NCBI GenBank assembly: GCA_026390735.1
Contig: JAPLFJ010000051.1
Coordinates: 1-64,000, forward strand
Direction: 5' to 3'
Source: Ignavibacteriota bacterium
GTDB taxonomy: Bacteria > Bacteroidota > Ignavibacteria > Tepidaquicellales > Tepidaquicellaceae
DNA: 64,000 nt
Shown: positions 52,501 through 60,651 of the stretch, piece by piece
Layout of the letters: every line of letters starts with the position of its first letter
How positions within the stretch are numbered: the first letter of the stretch is position 1
Position numbers and translations under genes: made by a program
Notes under the pieces: model-generated
The model's input: only the letters and a program-made list of their open reading frames with translations
What the model was told of the DNA's origin: nothing
The model's database searches: none

Positions 52501-52887
52501 ATGGCAGAAAGAAAATCGAATAAGTTGATTGAGTTTTTAATGAGTACAGAAGGAGAGACGAATGAAGAAGTGAGAGAGTATTTAATGGAGGTTGGGATTG
52601 ACCCAGAGGAAGCAGTAAAGAGCGCATTAAAAGCGATAAAAAAGAGAAGAGCAGAAAGGAAGAAAGCAGAAGGAAGAAGTTTGGTTGAGAGATTCAATGA
52701 AGCTATTCAACACACGAAGGAAGGGTTAACAAAAGAACCGACTGAAGAGAATTCAAAGATTGAAGGAGCTTTTGCTTTCAAAGGAATGAAGAAGACAACT
52801 GACGAGAATATAAAGATGCTTGAAGAAGATAACAAGAAATTAGAAATTTTAAAGAAGGTTAGAGATGATAACAGAGGAAAGTCTTAA
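52501..52887 (+). CDS. Small helical partner of an ImmA/IrrE peptidase, unknown family (128 aa)
   Basis: The protein is almost entirely helical and charged: SNKLIEFLMSTEGETNEEVR, EYLMEVGIDPEEAVKSALKA, then KKRRAERKKAEGRSLVERFN and a C-terminal coiled-coil-like stretch (ENIKMLEEDNKKLEILKKVR). It overlaps the ImmA/IrrE gene by 23 bp. That places it where an XRE repressor or antitoxin usually sits in such pairs, but no HTH is recognisable. It may be the substrate or inhibitor of the peptidase. Confidence 0.6.
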   Translation: MAERKSNKLIEFLMSTEGETNEEVREYLMEVGIDPEEAVKSALKAIKKRRAERKKAEGRSLVERFNEAIQHTKEGLTKEPTEENSKIEGAFAFKGMKKTTDENIKMLEEDNKKLEILKKVRDDNRGKS

Positions 52888-53644
52888 AGCAAAGGCAAGA
52901 GAGCTGCTGGATGTATATTGTGTAGATAACGTTAGTGAGTTTGAGATTGAAGAGATAGCAAATGCAGAAGGACTGATAATACAGGAAGAGAAGATGAGTA
53001 ATCATCATGGAAGGATAAATCACAAAGGAGATTATGGGATAATTACACTTAACAATAAAATATCGAGTGTAAATTTCAGAAGAATAGTAATAGCACATGA
53101 AATGGGACATTATTATTCGATGAGAAGGTACAAAAGATGCAGCACGGCAGACTTGCACAGTTACAGGTCAGACCAAAACGATGAATACATATCAAACGTA
53201 TTTGCGAATGAGTTTTTAATGCCTGAGGAATGGTTTTTGAAATTCACGAAGAAGACAAAACCGAACATTCAAATTTTAAAAGACATAGCTAACAATTTTC
53301 AAGTGACAATAAGTGCGGCATGCTATAGATATTCAAGTCTCGGAGATTATCCTGTTGCTATAATAATGAGTAAGGGTGGAAAAGTGATATGGAATACAAT
53401 AAGCAAAGCTTTTCCGTATCAATTTGTAAAAATCGGCAGCAAAGTAAATTCATATTCTAATGCATACAATTATTTTCAAGGGAAACCGATTGAGATTGGC
53501 GAGCACGAAGTGATGGCAGAAAGCTGGTTTTCGGAGGATTTTAATTTCAGAAGAGGTGTATTTTTTACGGAAGAGAATTTTGTGATGAGTAATTTAGGAG
53601 CGGTGTTGACAATAATTAAGGAGAATAGAAGGATATTTAAGTAA
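52865..53644 (+). CDS. ImmA/IrrE-family metallo-endopeptidase (first copy)
   Basis: This 259-residue protein has the zinc motif HEMGH at 78-82 (IVIAHEMGHYYSM), followed by FANEFLMPEEWF with the likely third ligand near 116. The C-terminal 100 residues form an IrrE-like regulatory half (KGGKVIWNTISKAFPYQFVK; GEHEVMAESWFSEDF). ImmA/IrrE peptidases cleave XRE-type repressors or antitoxins in response to damage or signals. The small overlapping upstream gene is the most likely partner. Confidence 0.9.
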   Translation: MITEESLKAKARELLDVYCVDNVSEFEIEEIANAEGLIIQEEKMSNHHGRINHKGDYGIITLNNKISSVNFRRIVIAHEMGHYYSMRRYKRCSTADLHSYRSDQNDEYISNVFANEFLMPEEWFLKFTKKTKPNIQILKDIANNFQVTISAACYRYSSLGDYPVAIIMSKGGKVIWNTISKAFPYQFVKIGSKVNSYSNAYNYFQGKPIEIGEHEVMAESWFSEDFNFRRGVFFTEENFVMSNLGAVLTIIKENRRIFK

Positions 53645-53796: not shown

Positions 53797-54141
53797 ATGG
53801 AACAAAGTATAACAATTGGGAAAAATTTAGCCTTTTTAAGAGAATTAAATAATATGACACAGGAAAAGGTTGCTGAATATTTAGGAATTAAAAGAGAAAC
53901 TATAAGTTATTATGAAAACGGCAGCAGAAATACACCATTAGATATATTGAACAAATTATCGGATTTATATCAGGTACAACTGATAGATATATTAGAGATG
54001 AAAGAAGAAGACAGGAAGGTAAAAACTGCTATGGCGTTCAGGGCAGAAGGATTAAGTGCAGAAGGATATAAGGCAATTGGAGAATTCGGAAAGATAGTAA
54101 AGAATTATTTAAAGATGAAAAGTATAGAGGAAAGAAAATGA
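53797..54141 (+). CDS. XRE-family HTH repressor / antitoxin-like protein
   Basis: This 114-residue protein has a canonical HTH_3 domain at about 9-64 (NLAFLRELNNMTQEKVAEYL, GIKRETISYYENGSRNTPLD). The C-terminal half (KVKTAMAFRAEGLSAEGYKA, IGEFGKIVKNYLK) is helical and may be the cleavage or toxin-binding segment. It overlaps the next ImmA/IrrE gene by ATGA and very likely binds the 11-bp inverted repeat just upstream. Confidence 0.92.
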   Translation: MEQSITIGKNLAFLRELNNMTQEKVAEYLGIKRETISYYENGSRNTPLDILNKLSDLYQVQLIDILEMKEEDRKVKTAMAFRAEGLSAEGYKAIGEFGKIVKNYLKMKSIEERK

Positions 54142-54839
54142 GTCACGAATTTGAAATGAAAATATTTGCAAAGGAATTCAGGGTTGAGAATGGTTTTGGA
54201 AAGACTGAGCCAATCCGGCTGAAAAGTCTGCTAATGAAATTAAACGTAATAACATTTTTCAGAGATATTGACGAAAACATTTCAGGCGTATCTTTGAAAG
54301 TAAATGACAACAGATTTATATTAATAAATTCATTGAAACCATTAGGGAGACAGCATTTCACTATTTGTCATGAATTGTATCATTTGTTTTTTGAAAAAGA
54401 ATTTGAGCGAAATGTATGCTATTCAGAAACACCAGGGAAAAGAAGTAATACAGAGATAAGAGCGGATTTATTCGCATCATATCTACTATTACCGGAAGAT
54501 GGTATTTCTGAATTGATTCCAAAAGAAGAAAGAGTACATAACAAAATTACATTGATGACATTAATAAAGGCAGAGCAATATTACTCATGTTCGAGAGGGG
54601 CGCTTTTAACTGCACTAAAGAGAATGAAATTAATAAACTCAACTTTTTATGAAAAATTTAAAAAGGATGTAATAGCGGATGCAGGCCGGCTAGGATATGA
54701 AACAACTCTATACGAAAAAGGAAACAAAGGAATTATAATTGGAGATTATGGAGAGAAAGCAAGACGACTGTATGAATCAGGAAATATTTCAGAGCAGAAT
54801 TATATTACAATGATGCTGGATGCAGGGATAGAGGTATAA
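54138..54839 (+). CDS. ImmA/IrrE-family metallo-endopeptidase (second copy)
   Basis: This 233-residue protein has zinc motif HELYH at 78-82 (HFTICHELYHLFF) and EIRADLFASYLLLPEDGI, typical of the family, followed by a helical segment (LIKAEQYYSCSRGALLTALK). It differs clearly from the first copy in sequence and C-terminal length. It is coupled to the XRE gene by a 4-bp overlap and precedes the PIN gene by 11 bp, so it may cleave the XRE protein or work with the PIN nuclease. Confidence 0.92.
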   Translation: MSHEFEMKIFAKEFRVENGFGKTEPIRLKSLLMKLNVITFFRDIDENISGVSLKVNDNRFILINSLKPLGRQHFTICHELYHLFFEKEFERNVCYSETPGKRSNTEIRADLFASYLLLPEDGISELIPKEERVHNKITLMTLIKAEQYYSCSRGALLTALKRMKLINSTFYEKFKKDVIADAGRLGYETTLYEKGNKGIIIGDYGEKARRLYESGNISEQNYITMMLDAGIEV

Positions 54840-54850
54840 AGAGGAAAACA

Positions 54851-55384
54851 ATGAGTAAAGATGAGGATAAAACTAAAATATTATTGGATGCTGATGTTAT
54901 AATAAACTTTATTAATGGGAATAAACTTTCTTTATTAGCTAAGATATTCCCTAATAGATTTTGCATTATTGACAGGGTTAAAAAAGAATTGAGCAAAAGA
55001 AACAGCGCGAAGATTTTAGTTGATAATTTTACACAAACAGAAAATATCGAAGAAATTTCGTTTCCTGACACAGATTATGAAATACTAAGAGAATATTCGA
55101 TTTTAGTGTCAACAGATTATGGGCTGGGAGACGGAGAGAGTGCATGTTTAGCGTATGCAAAATTCAGAGCTACCTACATATCAAGCAGTAATTTAGCAGA
55201 TGTGAGTAAATATTGCAAGGAGCACAACATCAAGAACATACCAACGATGGAATTGCTAAGAGAAGCGATGAGAAAGAGAATAATGACAGAACACGAGGCA
55301 GATGTATTCATACAAAACTGCTTGAGCAAAGGTGACAGATTACCAGCAAGAAATTGGAAAGATTACGAGAAGATATCAAAATAG
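54851..55384 (+). CDS. PIN-domain nuclease-like protein, probable toxin
   Basis: This 177-residue protein begins with the PIN metal-site strand ILLDADVIINFI (Asp13, Asp15) and continues with IIDRVKKELSKRN, STDYGLGDGESACLAYAK and TYISSSNLADVSKYC, which supply the remaining acidic positions. PIN toxins (VapC-like) cut RNA such as tRNA or rRNA. As the third gene after XRE and ImmA/IrrE it may form a three-component toxin-antitoxin or damage-response unit. SD AAAGAGGAAA precedes the ATG. Confidence 0.82.
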   Translation: MSKDEDKTKILLDADVIINFINGNKLSLLAKIFPNRFCIIDRVKKELSKRNSAKILVDNFTQTENIEEISFPDTDYEILREYSILVSTDYGLGDGESACLAYAKFRATYISSSNLADVSKYCKEHNIKNIPTMELLREAMRKRIMTEHEADVFIQNCLSKGDRLPARNWKDYEKISK

Positions 55385-55414: not shown

Positions 55415-55561
55415 TTACAACCCTGTGGGTTTGATTCTGCCTTTCCGCCGCGGCGGATCTTCGACGAACCTGCCCCATACGTTCCAGTAATCGAGAGTGT
55501 AGCTCTGATATACTGCGATTTCTTTTCCGGATGCGTCACGAGAATAGTATTCGTCTTTCAT
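55415..55561 (-). pseudogene. Orphan RHS fragment with an in-frame palindromic insertion
   Basis: This 48-codon open fragment, M-KDEYYSRDASGKEIAVYQ-SYTLDYWNVWG...GRIKPTG, copies the part of the neighbouring RHS gene near 57295-57400. Where the intact gene encodes SNNEG between WNVWG and RIKPTG, the fragment encodes RFVEDPPRRKG, translated from a family F palindrome (GATCCGCCGCGGCGG). It lies 16 bp beyond the stop of the putative immunity gene, the place where displaced RHS tips usually accumulate. Confidence 0.85.
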
Positions 55562-55577
55562 ATAATTTTTGCTATAT

Positions 55578-56342
55578 CTATTTTACAACAATTATATCCT
55601 TTGATTTTATAAATCCATGTTTAATTAGAATATCTTCACGGGCTTCTTTAAAATAATACACTATAGACATTGGTAAATAAAATTTTTTCTGATTTAATTT
55701 AAAAATAGCCGCATCAAATGATGCTTCAAATATTATATAACTAATTTTATCATTACTTTTTTTCCAAATTGTTTTACCATTTAATACATCTGTTGTTAAT
55801 ATTTGACCAATCCATTTTTTATCATTTGAGAAACAATGAATACTTGTAAATATTTGATAATAATATAAGAAATTAATTAATTCACCTCTTTTACCATCTA
55901 AAAAACTAAAATAACCATCATAAACAAACATATTAGATCCAAATAAATCATTTATTCTGCAGGAATCACAATCAAGCCTCACTAATGCACTATCTATTAT
56001 AAGTTCTCTATTTTCGGATTCATATCTTTTTTGGTACACAAAATAAATGGTTGGAGAAATATCGCGGTATTCGAATGTTGTATCCGGTGGGTGCACATAT
56101 TTCCAATTTATTGTATTTGAATCAAGTTGGATTATTAAATACCCAGAAAAACCACTTTTAACATCAATTAATTCAATATTATTAAAATCAATTTCATAGT
56201 TATATCTAAAGTTATTTGTAAGTCTTAATCCTTGGCTTAAAGAAAAGGTAATATTTTGAGTATATGCATTTTCAAATAACATATAAAATAATGTCAAGGA
56301 TACAAATAAAACTATAGAGAATTTATAAATCTGTTTTTCCAT
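55578..56342 (-). CDS. Exported protein of unknown function, candidate immunity protein
   Basis: This 254-residue protein has an N-terminal hydrophobic segment (FSIVLFVSLTLFYMLFENAY) that is a signal peptide or anchor. The rest is beta-rich with DCDSC near the middle; no family is recognised. It begins 9 bp after the RHS-metzincin gene, the usual position of an immunity gene, and its exported location would match a toxin acting outside the cytoplasm. The immunity role is inferred from position only. Confidence 0.6.
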   Translation of the reverse strand: MEKQIYKFSIVLFVSLTLFYMLFENAYTQNITFSLSQGLRLTNNFRYNYEIDFNNIELIDVKSGFSGYLIIQLDSNTINWKYVHPPDTTFEYRDISPTIYFVYQKRYESENRELIIDSALVRLDCDSCRINDLFGSNMFVYDGYFSFLDGKRGELINFLYYYQIFTSIHCFSNDKKWIGQILTTDVLNGKTIWKKSNDKISYIIFEASFDAAIFKLNQKKFYLPMSIVYYFKEAREDILIKHGFIKSKDIIVVK

Positions 56343-56351
56343 ATTAATTGA

Positions 56352-59003
56352 TTAATTATGAAATTTGTTAATATTGCTAAAAAGACCTCTTCTGTTAAGC
56401 TCAAAAACACTTTTCCAATCTTCAATACTAACTTTTGCTCTATAATACTTATCCCCATTTGGAGACAACCTAGGACCCGCAATAGAATTAGCTGGTATTA
56501 GACTTGTATTTGATTTTGGGTTATCAACATAAACTTTTCTTGCATCACTATGTTTTAAACCAAATAAATGCGCTAGTTCATGCGCACCTGAATCATCAAA
56601 ATATTTTAAATCACTTGAGATATATAATATATCATGAATATCACCTTTCTCAACATTTGCAGTTGCGACACCAATCCCAGGTTCATCTAATTCACCTAAC
56701 ACTTGACCTGTAGGATTTAAAACAAAATTATCATATTGACCTTTAAAATTTGATTGCATTTGATTCATATTCATATTTTTCGCTTCCAAAAAATTAACGC
56801 TTACTTGAGTATTCTCTGCAATGCTCCAAGATTCCATACTATATTTGATTTCACTTAAGGCATCAATTTGATCATTGTTTAAGCCATATGTTTTATCATT
56901 ACTCTCTCTTACATAATAAAAAGTATAATTGACAATTGTTAAATTCCCTTGTGTTGTAATTCTGGGTAATAGACCACCTTCGTCTGCCAATTTCATTGGA
57001 TTCAGCAAACCATACTGATAAGGTGAATAGGAAAAATATTTTTCAAGTAGCGGCTCAATTCCACCCCATCGTGCAATTCTTGCATCATAATATCTTGCCC
57101 CGAAATAATCATAACCGGTTTCTGCGTCTCTTTGTTTGCCAGTGAATTTGTAATTTGTGGATGTGGAATCCCAGGTTCTGGCGATGTGACCCCAAGGGTC
57201 ATAATCCTGTGCCTGAACTAATACATTGTTCTGGTTTATTACTGCACGGATTGAGCCGAGATGGTCTTTGAGGTAGAAATATTTCATACCTGTGGGTTTT
57301 ATTCTGCCTTCGTTATTGCTACCCCACACGTTCCAATAGTCGAGAGTGTAGCTCTGATAGACTGCGATTTCTTTACCCGACGCGTCCCTTGAATAGTATT
57401 CGTCTTTTGTGATTGTCCAGCCAGAAGGAAGGTCTTCATTTTCTTCAGGTAATGGAGGAGGATTTGAATCATTACTTCTGTAAATAGTTTTCCTTGTTCT
57501 GTTTCCTGCCTCATCGTACTTATATCTTGTAATGTCTGTTACAGGCGGGTCTTGTGTTAAATCCTGTCTTGTGAATTCGGTTATCAGGTTTCTGTGGTCA
57601 TATTTAATGCCGGTGTTGTTGTTTATGTAATCGTTTGTTTGATTGCCGTTGTAGTCGTAGGTATATTGGTCGGCTGAGCCTGTTATTTTCTTTAGTCTGT
57701 TTGTGCCAGAGTAATAGTCGTAAGAAAAATTATCGCTGTTGTAGCTGCGAGTGAGTGATGTGAAGTTGCCATCGGAGTCGTAAGAATAATCGCCTGTAAG
57801 GTCGAAGTATTTAGAGTTGTATTTTAATATCTGTTTAAGCCGGTTGGATTTATCATAGGTAAAACCAGACCTTATTTCTTTTGTGTTTGAAAAGTTACTT
57901 TTATAGGTTCCAGAAATACTCTGGCTGTTTACATTACCATTAGCAAGATAATCGAGAGAGTAGCTGAAGAGACTATAGTTATTAGTGCAACTTGTAATCC
58001 AGTTGCGGTTATTAAACGCATAGGATGCAGTAACATTAGTGTTGTTGAGAAGCAGACTGTCTGTCTGAGAATTCTCATTATACTTGTATTGAGCAAAGAC
58101 ATAGTTATAGTCAGGAGGCTGACCGCTTTCCTCTGTTGAGACGGAATGCATTCTGCCTGCGAAGTCGTAGTTGTAAATGCATCGTTTGTAATCTGTATCG
58201 GATTCAGACTGGTATTCGAGTTTAGTTAACTGATTCTGAGAGTTATATTCATATTTTGTTATTTTCCAGCCCAGCCCTGCGATGTAGTTCCACATTTTTA
58301 TTACTCTACTGCGAGCATCGTAACGGTAATACTTATAACTCCACTCATCTGTTCCGAGAGTGCGGTATGCAGCGGCACAGAGAGTGCCTTTTGTGTTGTT
58401 TGTGTTAAACGGGGACGAGGTATAATAATCAACGGGAACGTGGCTGCCAGTGAATAATGTACCGGCATTTGCCGGATAGTTTGTGAGCGTATCGTAGACA
58501 TTGATAACGAGAAAATTGTTCGGAGTACTGGAATAGGAATCAAAGTTGTATGTATTATCAGGGTTGAGATTAGACCATAAAACAAGTTCAGATTCATTAT
58601 AGGCATCGCAGAGATAGAGAATGCGGTTTAAGCCGTCGTATCCGCGGTAAGAAAGATACCTAGCAGGCGGTCTTTCTGTCGGTTTATTTGCCTGATTATT
58701 ATCCTGAGAAAAACGGAGGTTATCGTTTTTATCGTATTTATATTTTACTTCGCCAGCGTCGGGGGTAGTGCGTGAAGACTGCCGACCGAGACCGTCGTAG
58801 GTGTAGTATATATGTTTTTCGTTCGGTGTTTTGACTTCGATGACACGGTAGAGGGCGTCGTATTTGTAGTCGGTACAGAGCGGGAGAAGATCACCCACCC
58901 CGTCCGCCTTCGGCGTCCACCCCTCCCGAGAGTGGAATCTACAATTCCAATATTTATTAAAGCCATTTATCATAATGCAGAATGTATAAATAAGTTCACC
59001 CAC
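56352..59003 (-). CDS. RHS/YD-repeat polymorphic toxin with C-terminal metzincin-like protease, 5' end disrupted
   Basis: From about residue 45 this 883-residue frame has YD repeats (DYKYDALYRVIEVKTPNEKH, YTYDGLGRQSSRTTPDAG) and ends its RHS core with YKFTGKQRDAETGYDYFGAR, YYDARIARWGG...YSPYQYGLLNPMK. The following 206 residues are a variable tip carrying HELAHLFGLKH at 808-818, the HExxHxxGxxH zinc signature of metzincins. The first 45 residues (NCRFHSREGWTPKADG) come from a family E repeat, not from RHS. The gene thus lost its own 5' part; the 271-residue gene upstream is the likely missing start. It may be silent or translated separately. Confidence 0.8.
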   Translation of the reverse strand: MGELIYTFCIMINGFNKYWNCRFHSREGWTPKADGVGDLLPLCTDYKYDALYRVIEVKTPNEKHIYYTYDGLGRQSSRTTPDAGEVKYKYDKNDNLRFSQDNNQANKPTERPPARYLSYRGYDGLNRILYLCDAYNESELVLWSNLNPDNTYNFDSYSSTPNNFLVINVYDTLTNYPANAGTLFTGSHVPVDYYTSSPFNTNNTKGTLCAAAYRTLGTDEWSYKYYRYDARSRVIKMWNYIAGLGWKITKYEYNSQNQLTKLEYQSESDTDYKRCIYNYDFAGRMHSVSTEESGQPPDYNYVFAQYKYNENSQTDSLLLNNTNVTASYAFNNRNWITSCTNNYSLFSYSLDYLANGNVNSQSISGTYKSNFSNTKEIRSGFTYDKSNRLKQILKYNSKYFDLTGDYSYDSDGNFTSLTRSYNSDNFSYDYYSGTNRLKKITGSADQYTYDYNGNQTNDYINNNTGIKYDHRNLITEFTRQDLTQDPPVTDITRYKYDEAGNRTRKTIYRSNDSNPPPLPEENEDLPSGWTITKDEYYSRDASGKEIAVYQSYTLDYWNVWGSNNEGRIKPTGMKYFYLKDHLGSIRAVINQNNVLVQAQDYDPWGHIARTWDSTSTNYKFTGKQRDAETGYDYFGARYYDARIARWGGIEPLLEKYFSYSPYQYGLLNPMKLADEGGLLPRITTQGNLTIVNYTFYYVRESNDKTYGLNNDQIDALSEIKYSMESWSIAENTQVSVNFLEAKNMNMNQMQSNFKGQYDNFVLNPTGQVLGELDEPGIGVATANVEKGDIHDILYISSDLKYFDDSGAHELAHLFGLKHSDARKVYVDNPKSNTSLIPANSIAGPRLSPNGDKYYRAKVSIEDWKSVFELNRRGLFSNINKFHN

Positions 59004-59055
59004 CCCGTCCGTCTGCTAGAGCGGACGTCCTCCCCTCCCGAGTGGGGAATTCTTA
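58893..59055. repeat. Two family E elements interrupting the RHS locus
   Basis: CACCCACCCCGTCCGCCTTC, GGCGTCCACCCCTCCCGAGA, GTGGAATCT (about 58893-58945) and CACCCACCCCGTCCGTCTGC, TAGAGCGGACGTCCTCCCCT, CCCGAGTGGGGAATTCTT (58996-59055) are two copies about 100 bp apart. They lie between the N-terminal and the YD-repeat parts of the RHS protein. The first is read as protein in the downstream frame. Confidence 0.8.
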
Positions 59056-59103
59056 ATATGCACGCATTTTTCATTGTCATTGTAAGCAAATTTACTATTA
59101 AAA

Positions 59104-59919
59104 TTATGATAAGTCAATATTATACGTGAAATCAGCGTATTGATTTTTGTATTCTTCATAAACGTACGTGAGACCATCGCCTTTCATAAAAGAAACACGA
59201 CGGTTCCTGTAAGCGGGTTGAGTAGAATATTCAATAAATTCAACTCTTGCTCTGGAATAATCATCCAAGCCATCGACATAATAATCGCCGATATAACAAC
59301 CGTCGTAATTGATTCCAAAAGAGCAAGAACTCTCAATTCTCTTCAGATACATAGCAGAGCCGTCGCCTCGCATCAGAATAATTACATCACGCATTCCAGA
59401 TTCAAGAGACCGAAGGTTATCAGTAAGGTGGTAGCCCATAGCGAGCATACGGACACCAGAATTTACGATAGAGTCACCGCTATTTGGAACAGAGAAGAAA
59501 TTTGTTTCGAAGTTCAGCATTTGAACAGCCATACCGTTAAGGCTGAGAATCCATCCCGGTGCAGAAACATTGTGACGAGGGAGAGAATTACCCGTAAGGA
59601 GGCTATTAGCGGCGGGTATTACCTGATAATTAACCGAACCATTGTAGTTCAGGGAAAGGTCTAAATGAATATCGCCGGGACCTTTAAGGCTGTACATTGG
59701 AAAGGTGTAGCAGAGATTTCCATTGAAATTATTTATCATTTCACCTTCATCGGGCGAGACTGAGCCCGACTTGAGGAAGCCGCGTTCATTGAACATGCCG
59801 CTGACATCAAGGGGGATGTTCGGCTGAGAGAGCAAAGACGGGGCAAAGAAAATAATAAAACATAAAGCAAAATTCACAAGAGAGAAATATCTCTTTAGTT
59901 CGGTAATTATTGTATCCAT
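59104..59919 (-). CDS. N-terminal part of an RHS-type secreted protein, separated from its repeats
   Basis: This 271-residue protein has a signal peptide (FSLVNFALCFIIFFAPSLLS) and then the opening typical of RHS/SpvB-like proteins: SVSPDEGEMINNFNGNLCYT, FPMYSLKGPGDIHLDLSLNY, NGSV and APGWILSLNGMAVQML. It stops at ADFTYNIDLS, where YD repeats would be expected to continue. Only 100 bp of repeat-rich DNA separates it from the RHS repeat gene, so the two were probably one gene before a deletion and insertion. Confidence 0.75.
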   Translation of the reverse strand: MDTIITELKRYFSLVNFALCFIIFFAPSLLSQPNIPLDVSGMFNERGFLKSGSVSPDEGEMINNFNGNLCYTFPMYSLKGPGDIHLDLSLNYNGSVNYQVIPAANSLLTGNSLPRHNVSAPGWILSLNGMAVQMLNFETNFFSVPNSGDSIVNSGVRMLAMGYHLTDNLRSLESGMRDVIILMRGDGSAMYLKRIESSCSFGINYDGCYIGDYYVDGLDDYSRARVEFIEYSTQPAYRNRRVSFMKGDGLTYVYEEYKNQYADFTYNIDLS

Positions 59920-60348: not shown

Positions 60349-60651
60349 TTATTTAGGACAAGACCAGTTAAGATTGTCTGCCTTATCAGCATTGTTTGAC
60401 CAGTGCAATGGCTGTAAATTACTTAAGTCATCACTACCGCCATTTGAAACAGGATTTATATGATCTATTTCCCAACCATAAACAGAATCCCTGTTTCCGT
60501 GTTCTGAATATTTCATGTTTTTACCACATTTGTCCTTCCGCCAAAAGATTGGGTCATTTCCAGAAATGAATAGAGCTTTACCCCATACAGCTTTCTTGGT
60601 GTCTTCCGACCAACTACCACCATCTTTGTTTGTGTTAAATGTTCTTGGCAT
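60349..60651 (-). CDS. HNH endonuclease-like protein
   Basis: This 100-residue protein has the HNH nuclease core WEIDHINPVSNGGSDDLSNL, QPLHWSNNADK, with the catalytic DH pair, the central Asn and the terminal basic or Asn-rich segment. AAAAGGAAAC precedes the ATG at ideal spacing. It is a free-standing HNH domain, which may be a mobile endonuclease, a toxin tip that gained its own start, or a restriction-type enzyme. The neighbouring RHS locus makes the toxin-tip origin worth considering. Confidence 0.82.
   Translation of the reverse strand: MPRTFNTNKDGGSWSEDTKKAVWGKALFISGNDPIFWRKDKCGKNMKYSEHGNRDSVYGWEIDHINPVSNGGSDDLSNLQPLHWSNNADKADNLNWSCPK

What the first reader, a model, noticed from the sequence alone, without database searches (positions are those of the whole stretch)
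55578..59003. RHS toxin tip with a metzincin zinc motif and an exported candidate immunity protein
After the RHS core ends, a 206-residue tip carries HExxHxxGxxH. The next gene, 9 bp on, encodes an exported protein of unknown family. A secreted protease effector with envelope-located immunity would be consistent and appears little described.
Basis: partly seen in the sequence, partly recalled or inferred. Interest (0 to 1): 0.6.

Follow-up and report, generated by a model that had tools for sequence, protein, structure and literature searches.

The report
RHS metzincin-like toxin with exported immunity
A bacterial "toxic tip" that looks like a zinc protease is always paired, across an order of Ignavibacteria, with an exported partner that is probably its antidote; the copy in this window is a stranded spare whose delivery part has been lost.

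Summary
The 206-residue RHS tip (56352-56972, HELAHLFGLKH at 56550-56582) and the 254-residue exported protein 9 bp downstream belong to a tip/partner family found, as far as sampled, in one order of Ignavibacteria. A profile finds 17 tips in 10 of 44 genomes. All 16 with readable downstream DNA are followed at once by a homologue of the partner. Six more partners stand alone, five of them in genomes without a tip: the orphan-immunity pattern. Tip and partner distances correlate (Mantel r 0.53, p 0.0002); neither tracks the RHS core. The predicted tip fold matches metzincins; most relatives carry HExxHxxGxx(H/D) plus the Met-turn. The partner has no family or fold match. The signal-peptide part (59104-59919) is cut off, about 1,000 RHS residues are missing, the tip lacks the Met-turn methionine, and a core remnant lies downstream (55470-55558). 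It is best read as an orphan cassette like those known in Salmonella. No VipB-type T6SS sheath gene was found; intact relatives carry a signal peptide. Protease activity and immunity remain inferred.

The parts
56352..56972 (-). RHS tip, 206 aa, metzincin-like domain
   Evidence: motif, alignment with 15 relatives, AlphaFold2 model (pLDDT 70) whose best structural matches are metzincins
56550..56582 (-). HELAHLFGLKH zinc-binding motif
55578..56342 (-). exported partner, 254 aa, candidate immunity protein
56973..59003 (-). C-terminal part of the RHS core (start of the 883-aa ORF; no signal peptide)
59104..59919 (-). detached N-terminal RHS fragment, 271 aa, with signal peptide; 88% identical over 267 residues to the full-length paralogue in L020
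58886..59120 (-). break region: 61-bp internal RHS remnant (59060-59120) and two copies of a GC-rich repeat (cores 58914-58928 and 59026-59040) where about 1,000 codons of the paralogue are missing
55470..55558 (-). RHS core remnant downstream of the partner, trace of a further cassette

Best explanation
The pair is a cassette of an antibacterial polymorphic toxin. In intact members a Sec signal peptide exports a RHS protein of about 2,100 residues whose C-terminal metzincin-like zinc protease (about 200 residues) is released at a rival and cleaves an envelope protein; the gene immediately downstream makes an exported protein that blocks the protease in the producer's own envelope. The window copy is an orphan (silent) cassette: RHS core end, tip and immunity gene are retained, but the signal-peptide part is split off and about 1,000 residues are lost, so it can act only through its immunity gene or after recombination with the full-length RHS gene on contig C61. 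Shown: anatomy, family, pairing, orphan partners, fold resemblance, broken N-terminus. Inferred: proteolysis, target compartment, neutralisation, the orphan-cassette role.
For: 17 homologous RHS tips in 10/44 genomes of the order; every one of the 16 with downstream sequence is followed by the partner, overlapping or within 19 bp. Partner profile: 22 hits, 16 next to tips and 6 alone, five of these in genomes with no tip; two sit in an array of other small exported/lipoprotein genes. Mantel tip-partner r=0.53, p=0.0002; tip-core r=-0.01; partner-core r=-0.14. Fold: Foldseek's hits with E<0.001 are two chains of B. fragilis metalloproteinase-II and MMP-11; the VIA list is metzincin-fold throughout, incl. 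astacin, snapalysin and karilysin, Z 6.5-7.3. Sequence profile against PDB: metzincins at the top. Three full-length RHS with these tips (2122-2188 aa) begin with signal peptides. No VipB in 10 tip-bearing genomes. Another tip in this genome resembles Tlde1, a periplasm-acting effector domain, and its neighbour is a multi-pass membrane protein; two further tips have exported neighbours, consistent with an envelope target. Broken N-terminus. Orphan tip/immunity cassettes that are activated by recombination are documented in Salmonella (PMC3967940).
Against: No activity data. The window tip has Ala (NSIAGP) where the same-genus relative has Met (NSIMGK); the full-length paralogue C61 has Glu as putative third ligand and no Met-turn, and G412b has Gly, so some members may be inactive. 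Z around 7 is middling and the model's C-terminal third is of low confidence. Partner homology at the extremes of the family is weak pairwise. The break could in principle be an assembly fault in a repeat-rich draft genome.
Confidence: 0.77

Rival explanations
1. The window tip is an inactive relic: without Met-turn and without delivery part the cassette is decaying and only the immunity gene still earns its keep. (Compatible with the family-level explanation; it concerns this copy.)
For: Loss of about 1,000 RHS residues at repeats; Met-turn Met replaced; core remnant downstream.
Against: The 883-codon frame has no stop; the core is under purifying constraint like other cassettes (dN/dS 0.13-0.19), though gene conversion could explain that; substitutions of the Met in other metzincins can leave stable enzymes with reduced or near-normal activity (PMC1266349); a second relative (G419:C48) shares the Ala.
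Confidence: 0.4
2. The tip is a self-processing protease that trims or releases the RHS protein, and the neighbour is a folding helper or inhibitor of that step rather than immunity.
For: PVC-type metallopeptidases do this in other polymorphic toxins (PMC3482391).
Against: The domain is the variable C-terminal end and alternates with other tips in the same genome (Tlde1-like, hydrolase-like, others); partner orphans exist without any tip.
Confidence: 0.08
3. The tip acts on eukaryotic predators or on extracellular protein for feeding, and the neighbour protects the producer's own surface incidentally.
For: Best fold matches include secreted proteases that act on host protein.
Against: Strict pairing with a co-diverging partner and orphan partners point to conflict between bacteria.
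Confidence: 0.07
4. The HExxH tip is a non-proteolytic binding domain on a metzincin scaffold.
For: Third ligand and Met-turn are eroded in some members, including the full-length paralogue.
Against: HExxHxxG is invariant in all 16 and a full site (H or D third ligand plus Met-turn) is present in 11 of 16.
Confidence: 0.08

Closest known systems
VgrG2b / PA0261 of Pseudomonas aeruginosa (PMC6899460)
   Same: Metallopeptidase effector domain at a C-terminus, toxic only in the periplasm, neutralised by an immunity protein with a signal peptide
   Different: VgrG2b is a thermolysin-like gluzincin with a distal Glu ligand and T6SS delivery; here metzincin-type HExxHxxGxx(H/D), RHS protein with signal peptide, no VipB
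Tox-MPTase1-5, HopH1-like and other zincin toxin domains of Zhang et al. 2012 (PMC3482391)
   Same: Zincin-like metallopeptidase tips on RHS proteins, including in Bacteroidetes
   Different: Only HExxH is given as their signature and no immunity family is listed for the Tox-MPTases; no such model matched our tips
Orphan rhs-CT/immunity cassettes, e.g. Salmonella LT2 (PMC3967940)
   Same: Tip fragment plus immunity gene without start or export signals, able to be activated by recombination with the main rhs gene
   Different: Here the N-terminal fragment remains directly upstream and the gene looks internally deleted rather than simply displaced
Secreted metzincins (B. fragilis metalloproteinase-II, MMPs, adamalysins, snapalysin)
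   Same: Predicted fold and zinc motif
   Different: Free secreted enzymes, not RHS tips; they keep the Met-turn, absent in the window copy

Membership tests
Metzincin clan MA(M) | HExxHxxGxx(H/D) zinc motif | tested here: met
   HELAHLFGLKH; H or D at the third position in 13 of 16 relatives (E, G and a shifted H in one each)
Metzincin clan MA(M) | Met-turn methionine | tested here: not met
   Window copy: no Met after the motif; NSIAGP corresponds to NSIMGK of the same-genus relative; present in 11 of 16 family members. So: works like a metzincin, family metzincin-type, this copy not a canonical member
Metzincin clan MA(M) | Metzincin fold | tested here: inconclusive
   Foldseek E 5e-4 and VIA Z up to 7.3, top hits metzincins, but Z under 8 and the C-terminal third of the model is low confidence
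Metzincin clan MA(M) | Zn-dependent proteolysis | not testable with these tools
   needs expression and assay
RHS polymorphic toxin | RHS core followed by exchangeable tip and adjacent immunity gene | tested here: met
   Pfam RHS_repeat; the same core carries several different tips in this genome; 16/16 partner adjacency
RHS polymorphic toxin | Intact delivery N-terminus in this copy | tested here: not met
   N-terminal fragment split off, about residues 268-1286 of the paralogue absent
Immunity protein | Neutralises the cognate toxin | not testable with these tools
   Inferred from pairing, orphan copies and correlated divergence
VgrG2b gluzincin effector | Glu third ligand on a distal helix; VgrG/T6SS delivery | tested here: not met
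   Putative third ligand lies 6 residues after the second His; no VipB match in 10 genomes
Tox-MPTase1-5 | Match to the family model | tested here: inconclusive
   No Tox-MPTase model among Pfam matches of any of 16 tips at E 0.1; whether all five have a Pfam model was not verified

The most novel reading that the evidence does not exclude
A new toxin/immunity family: metzincin-type RHS tips whose third zinc ligand switches between His and Asp and whose Met-turn is lost in some members, countered by a dedicated exported inhibitor of a fold without known relatives; in effect a bacterial metzincin-inhibitor family diverging together with its protease.
Probability: 0.4. Interest if true: 0.65.

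Novelty: new variant of a known kind. Interest (0 to 1): 0.5.

Why it matters
It gives metallopeptidase RHS tips what the published catalogue lacks, a cognate immunity family, and does so in Ignavibacteria without a detectable VipB sheath, where RHS proteins carry signal peptides. The partner is a candidate natural inhibitor of metzincin-type proteases, the clan of MMPs and ADAMs, with no recognisable relatives. The orphan partners suggest that some of these little-studied bacteria keep protection against a weapon they do not own.

Tried and rejected
Single-sequence searches for the tip in genome, viral and plasmid collections found nothing, as did a two-sequence profile of relatives in viral contigs; only searches inside the order revealed the family, so an early conclusion 'unique to this genome' was dropped. 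BLASTP of the two in-genome partners was not significant (E 0.042); their homology became clear only with intermediates. Partner fold search: nothing (best VIA Z 2.5; Foldseek E 1.9) and no PDB sequence match; this does not prove a new fold (pLDDT 76, 16 sequences). T6SS delivery: no VipB; the PF17541 search rang in no control, so it shows nothing; phage-sheath hits in only 2 of 10 genomes and not in this one. T9SS sorting domains are abundant in all 10 genomes, but the RHS proteins end in the tip and the Pfam scan found no sorting domain on them, so a T9SS route is not supported by the usual signal. No attempt was made to restore the broken gene.

Full report
Observation. The two ORFs are as described: 883 aa at 56352-59003 and 254 aa at 55578-56342, minus strand, 9 bp apart. 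The last 206 residues follow the RHS core end and carry HELAHLFGLKH at 56550-56582, the only HExxHxxGxxH in the window; one of 200,000 shuffles of the tip makes the motif. Pfam gives RHS repeats and a sub-threshold matrixin match.

The gene is broken. The window is part of contig C15 of a 4.0-Mb, 69-contig genome. The same genome has a full-length RHS of 2136 aa on contig C61 (L020), with a signal peptide. Mapping the window pieces separately onto it, the 271-aa ORF 59104-59919 matches its residues 1-267 (88%) and the 883-aa ORF matches from residue 1287 on; DNA matches leave only a 61-bp remnant (59060-59120) of the missing middle, next to two copies of a GC-rich repeat. So the tip-bearing ORF has no export signal. 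Its core end (57063-57825) is 89.5% identical to the core of an orphan cassette on C61 and only 68% to the full-length gene, a trace of exchange between cassettes. An 89-bp core remnant follows the partner (55470-55558). The core is still constrained (dN/dS 0.13-0.19 against the orphan cassettes C61-Tlde1, C22a and C22b), so the break may be recent, or conversion maintains the sequence.

The family. Within the order (44 genomes; Ignavibacteria, by the titles of two matching records), a five-sequence profile finds 17 RHS tips in 10 genomes. A search of 294 genomes of the class adds only two weak hits outside the order; one of these (L078) looks like another RHS tip followed by a lipoprotein gene. 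A search of 395 genomes of the phylum shows distant relatives of two main kinds: at least one further RHS tip (G033, L091) followed by a different small lipoprotein gene, and standalone proteins of about 215-265 aa without an RHS core. In this genome the profile hits only the two RHS tips.

Active site. HExxH and the following Gly are invariant in 16 aligned tips. The third ligand position is His in 8, Asp in 5, and Glu, Gly or a shifted His in one each. A Met-turn ((S/D/N)(I/V)M) is present in 11 of 16, all of them with His or Asp as third ligand; the window copy and G419:C48 have Ala there, and C61, G412b and G429a also lack the Met. Published substitutions of this Met in other metzincins can leave stable enzymes with reduced or near-normal activity (PMC1266349), so loss of Met is not proof of inactivity.

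Fold. AlphaFold2 with 16 sequences gives pLDDT 70, pTM 0.71; Foldseek's three hits under E 0.001 are two chains of B. fragilis metalloproteinase-II and stromelysin-3, and the 50 listed VIA matches are metzincin-fold proteins, Z 6.5-7.3, rmsd 3.5-5.3 A. A profile against PDB sequences agrees. The partner model (pLDDT 76) has a long N-terminal helix (signal peptide) and a mainly beta body without significant match.

Pairing. Sixteen of sixteen tips with readable downstream DNA are followed by a partner homologue, mostly overlapping the tip gene by a few bases (the seventeenth tip is at a contig end). A 16-member partner profile finds 22 genes in 14 genomes: these 16, and six without their own tip (G396, G397 twice, G408, G433, and a second copy beside a G419 pair); G396, G397, G408 and G433 have no tip match at all. 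In G397 the two copies sit among other small exported genes. Distances between tips correlate with those between partners (r 0.53, p 0.0002) but not with those between the adjoining core ends: the two genes travel and diverge as a unit. This, with the orphan copies, is the pattern of toxin and immunity.

Compartment and delivery. All partners examined have hydrophobic N-termini. Other tips in this genome also have exported or membrane neighbours, one tip resembling Tlde1 (E 9e-4, below Pfam's cut-off). Full-length RHS proteins with this tip in three genomes start with signal peptides. No VipB was found in 10 tip-bearing genomes, with the E. coli control positive. I infer Sec export and a periplasmic or surface target; the route across the outer membrane is unknown.

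Known or new. A periplasm-acting metallopeptidase effector with exported immunity exists (VgrG2b/PA0261), but it is a gluzincin on a T6SS spike (PMC6899460). Metallopeptidase RHS tips were predicted in 2012 without listed immunity families (PMC3482391). The word metzincin does not occur in the held text of that catalogue, and my literature searches found no metzincin RHS tip and no trace of this partner; the library holds only openly licensed papers. Orphan cassettes of this kind are known in Salmonella (PMC3967940). I therefore rate it a new variant of a known kind.

Noticed in passing
L020 801-2363 and 258-791: Orphan RHS cassette in the same genome with a Tlde1-like (L,D-transpeptidase effector) tip and a four-helix membrane neighbour.
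   Followed up: partly
L021 2-1471, 3966-5348; L022 2-1501: Further RHS cassettes with unclassified or alpha/beta-hydrolase-like tips and exported or membrane neighbours; a possible relative of the L022 partner stands alone in the orphan-immunity array of G397 (L065).
   Followed up: partly
L095-L099, L092: Standalone, apparently non-exported metzincin-like proteins of about 215-265 aa in other Bacteroidota, several beside the same dehydrogenase-like gene: possible non-toxin relatives or ancestors of the tip.
   Followed up: partly
L091 1132-2049 and L078 1348-2130 (oriented to the match): RHS metzincin-type tips outside the order, followed by unrelated lipoprotein genes: possibly independent immunity partners.
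   Followed up: no
52865-53644, 53797-54141, 54138-54839, 54851-55384: Two IrrE/M78-type metallopeptidase genes, an XRE-type regulator and a PIN-like protein in a row, resembling XRE-ImmA/IrrE toxin-antitoxin modules.
   Followed up: no
60349-60651: Small free-standing HNH nuclease gene (100 aa) upstream of the RHS fragment, with a DUF1508 gene between; possibly a displaced nuclease tip.
   Followed up: no
58914-58928 and 59026-59040: Two copies of a GC-rich repeat sit in the break of the RHS gene.
   Followed up: partly
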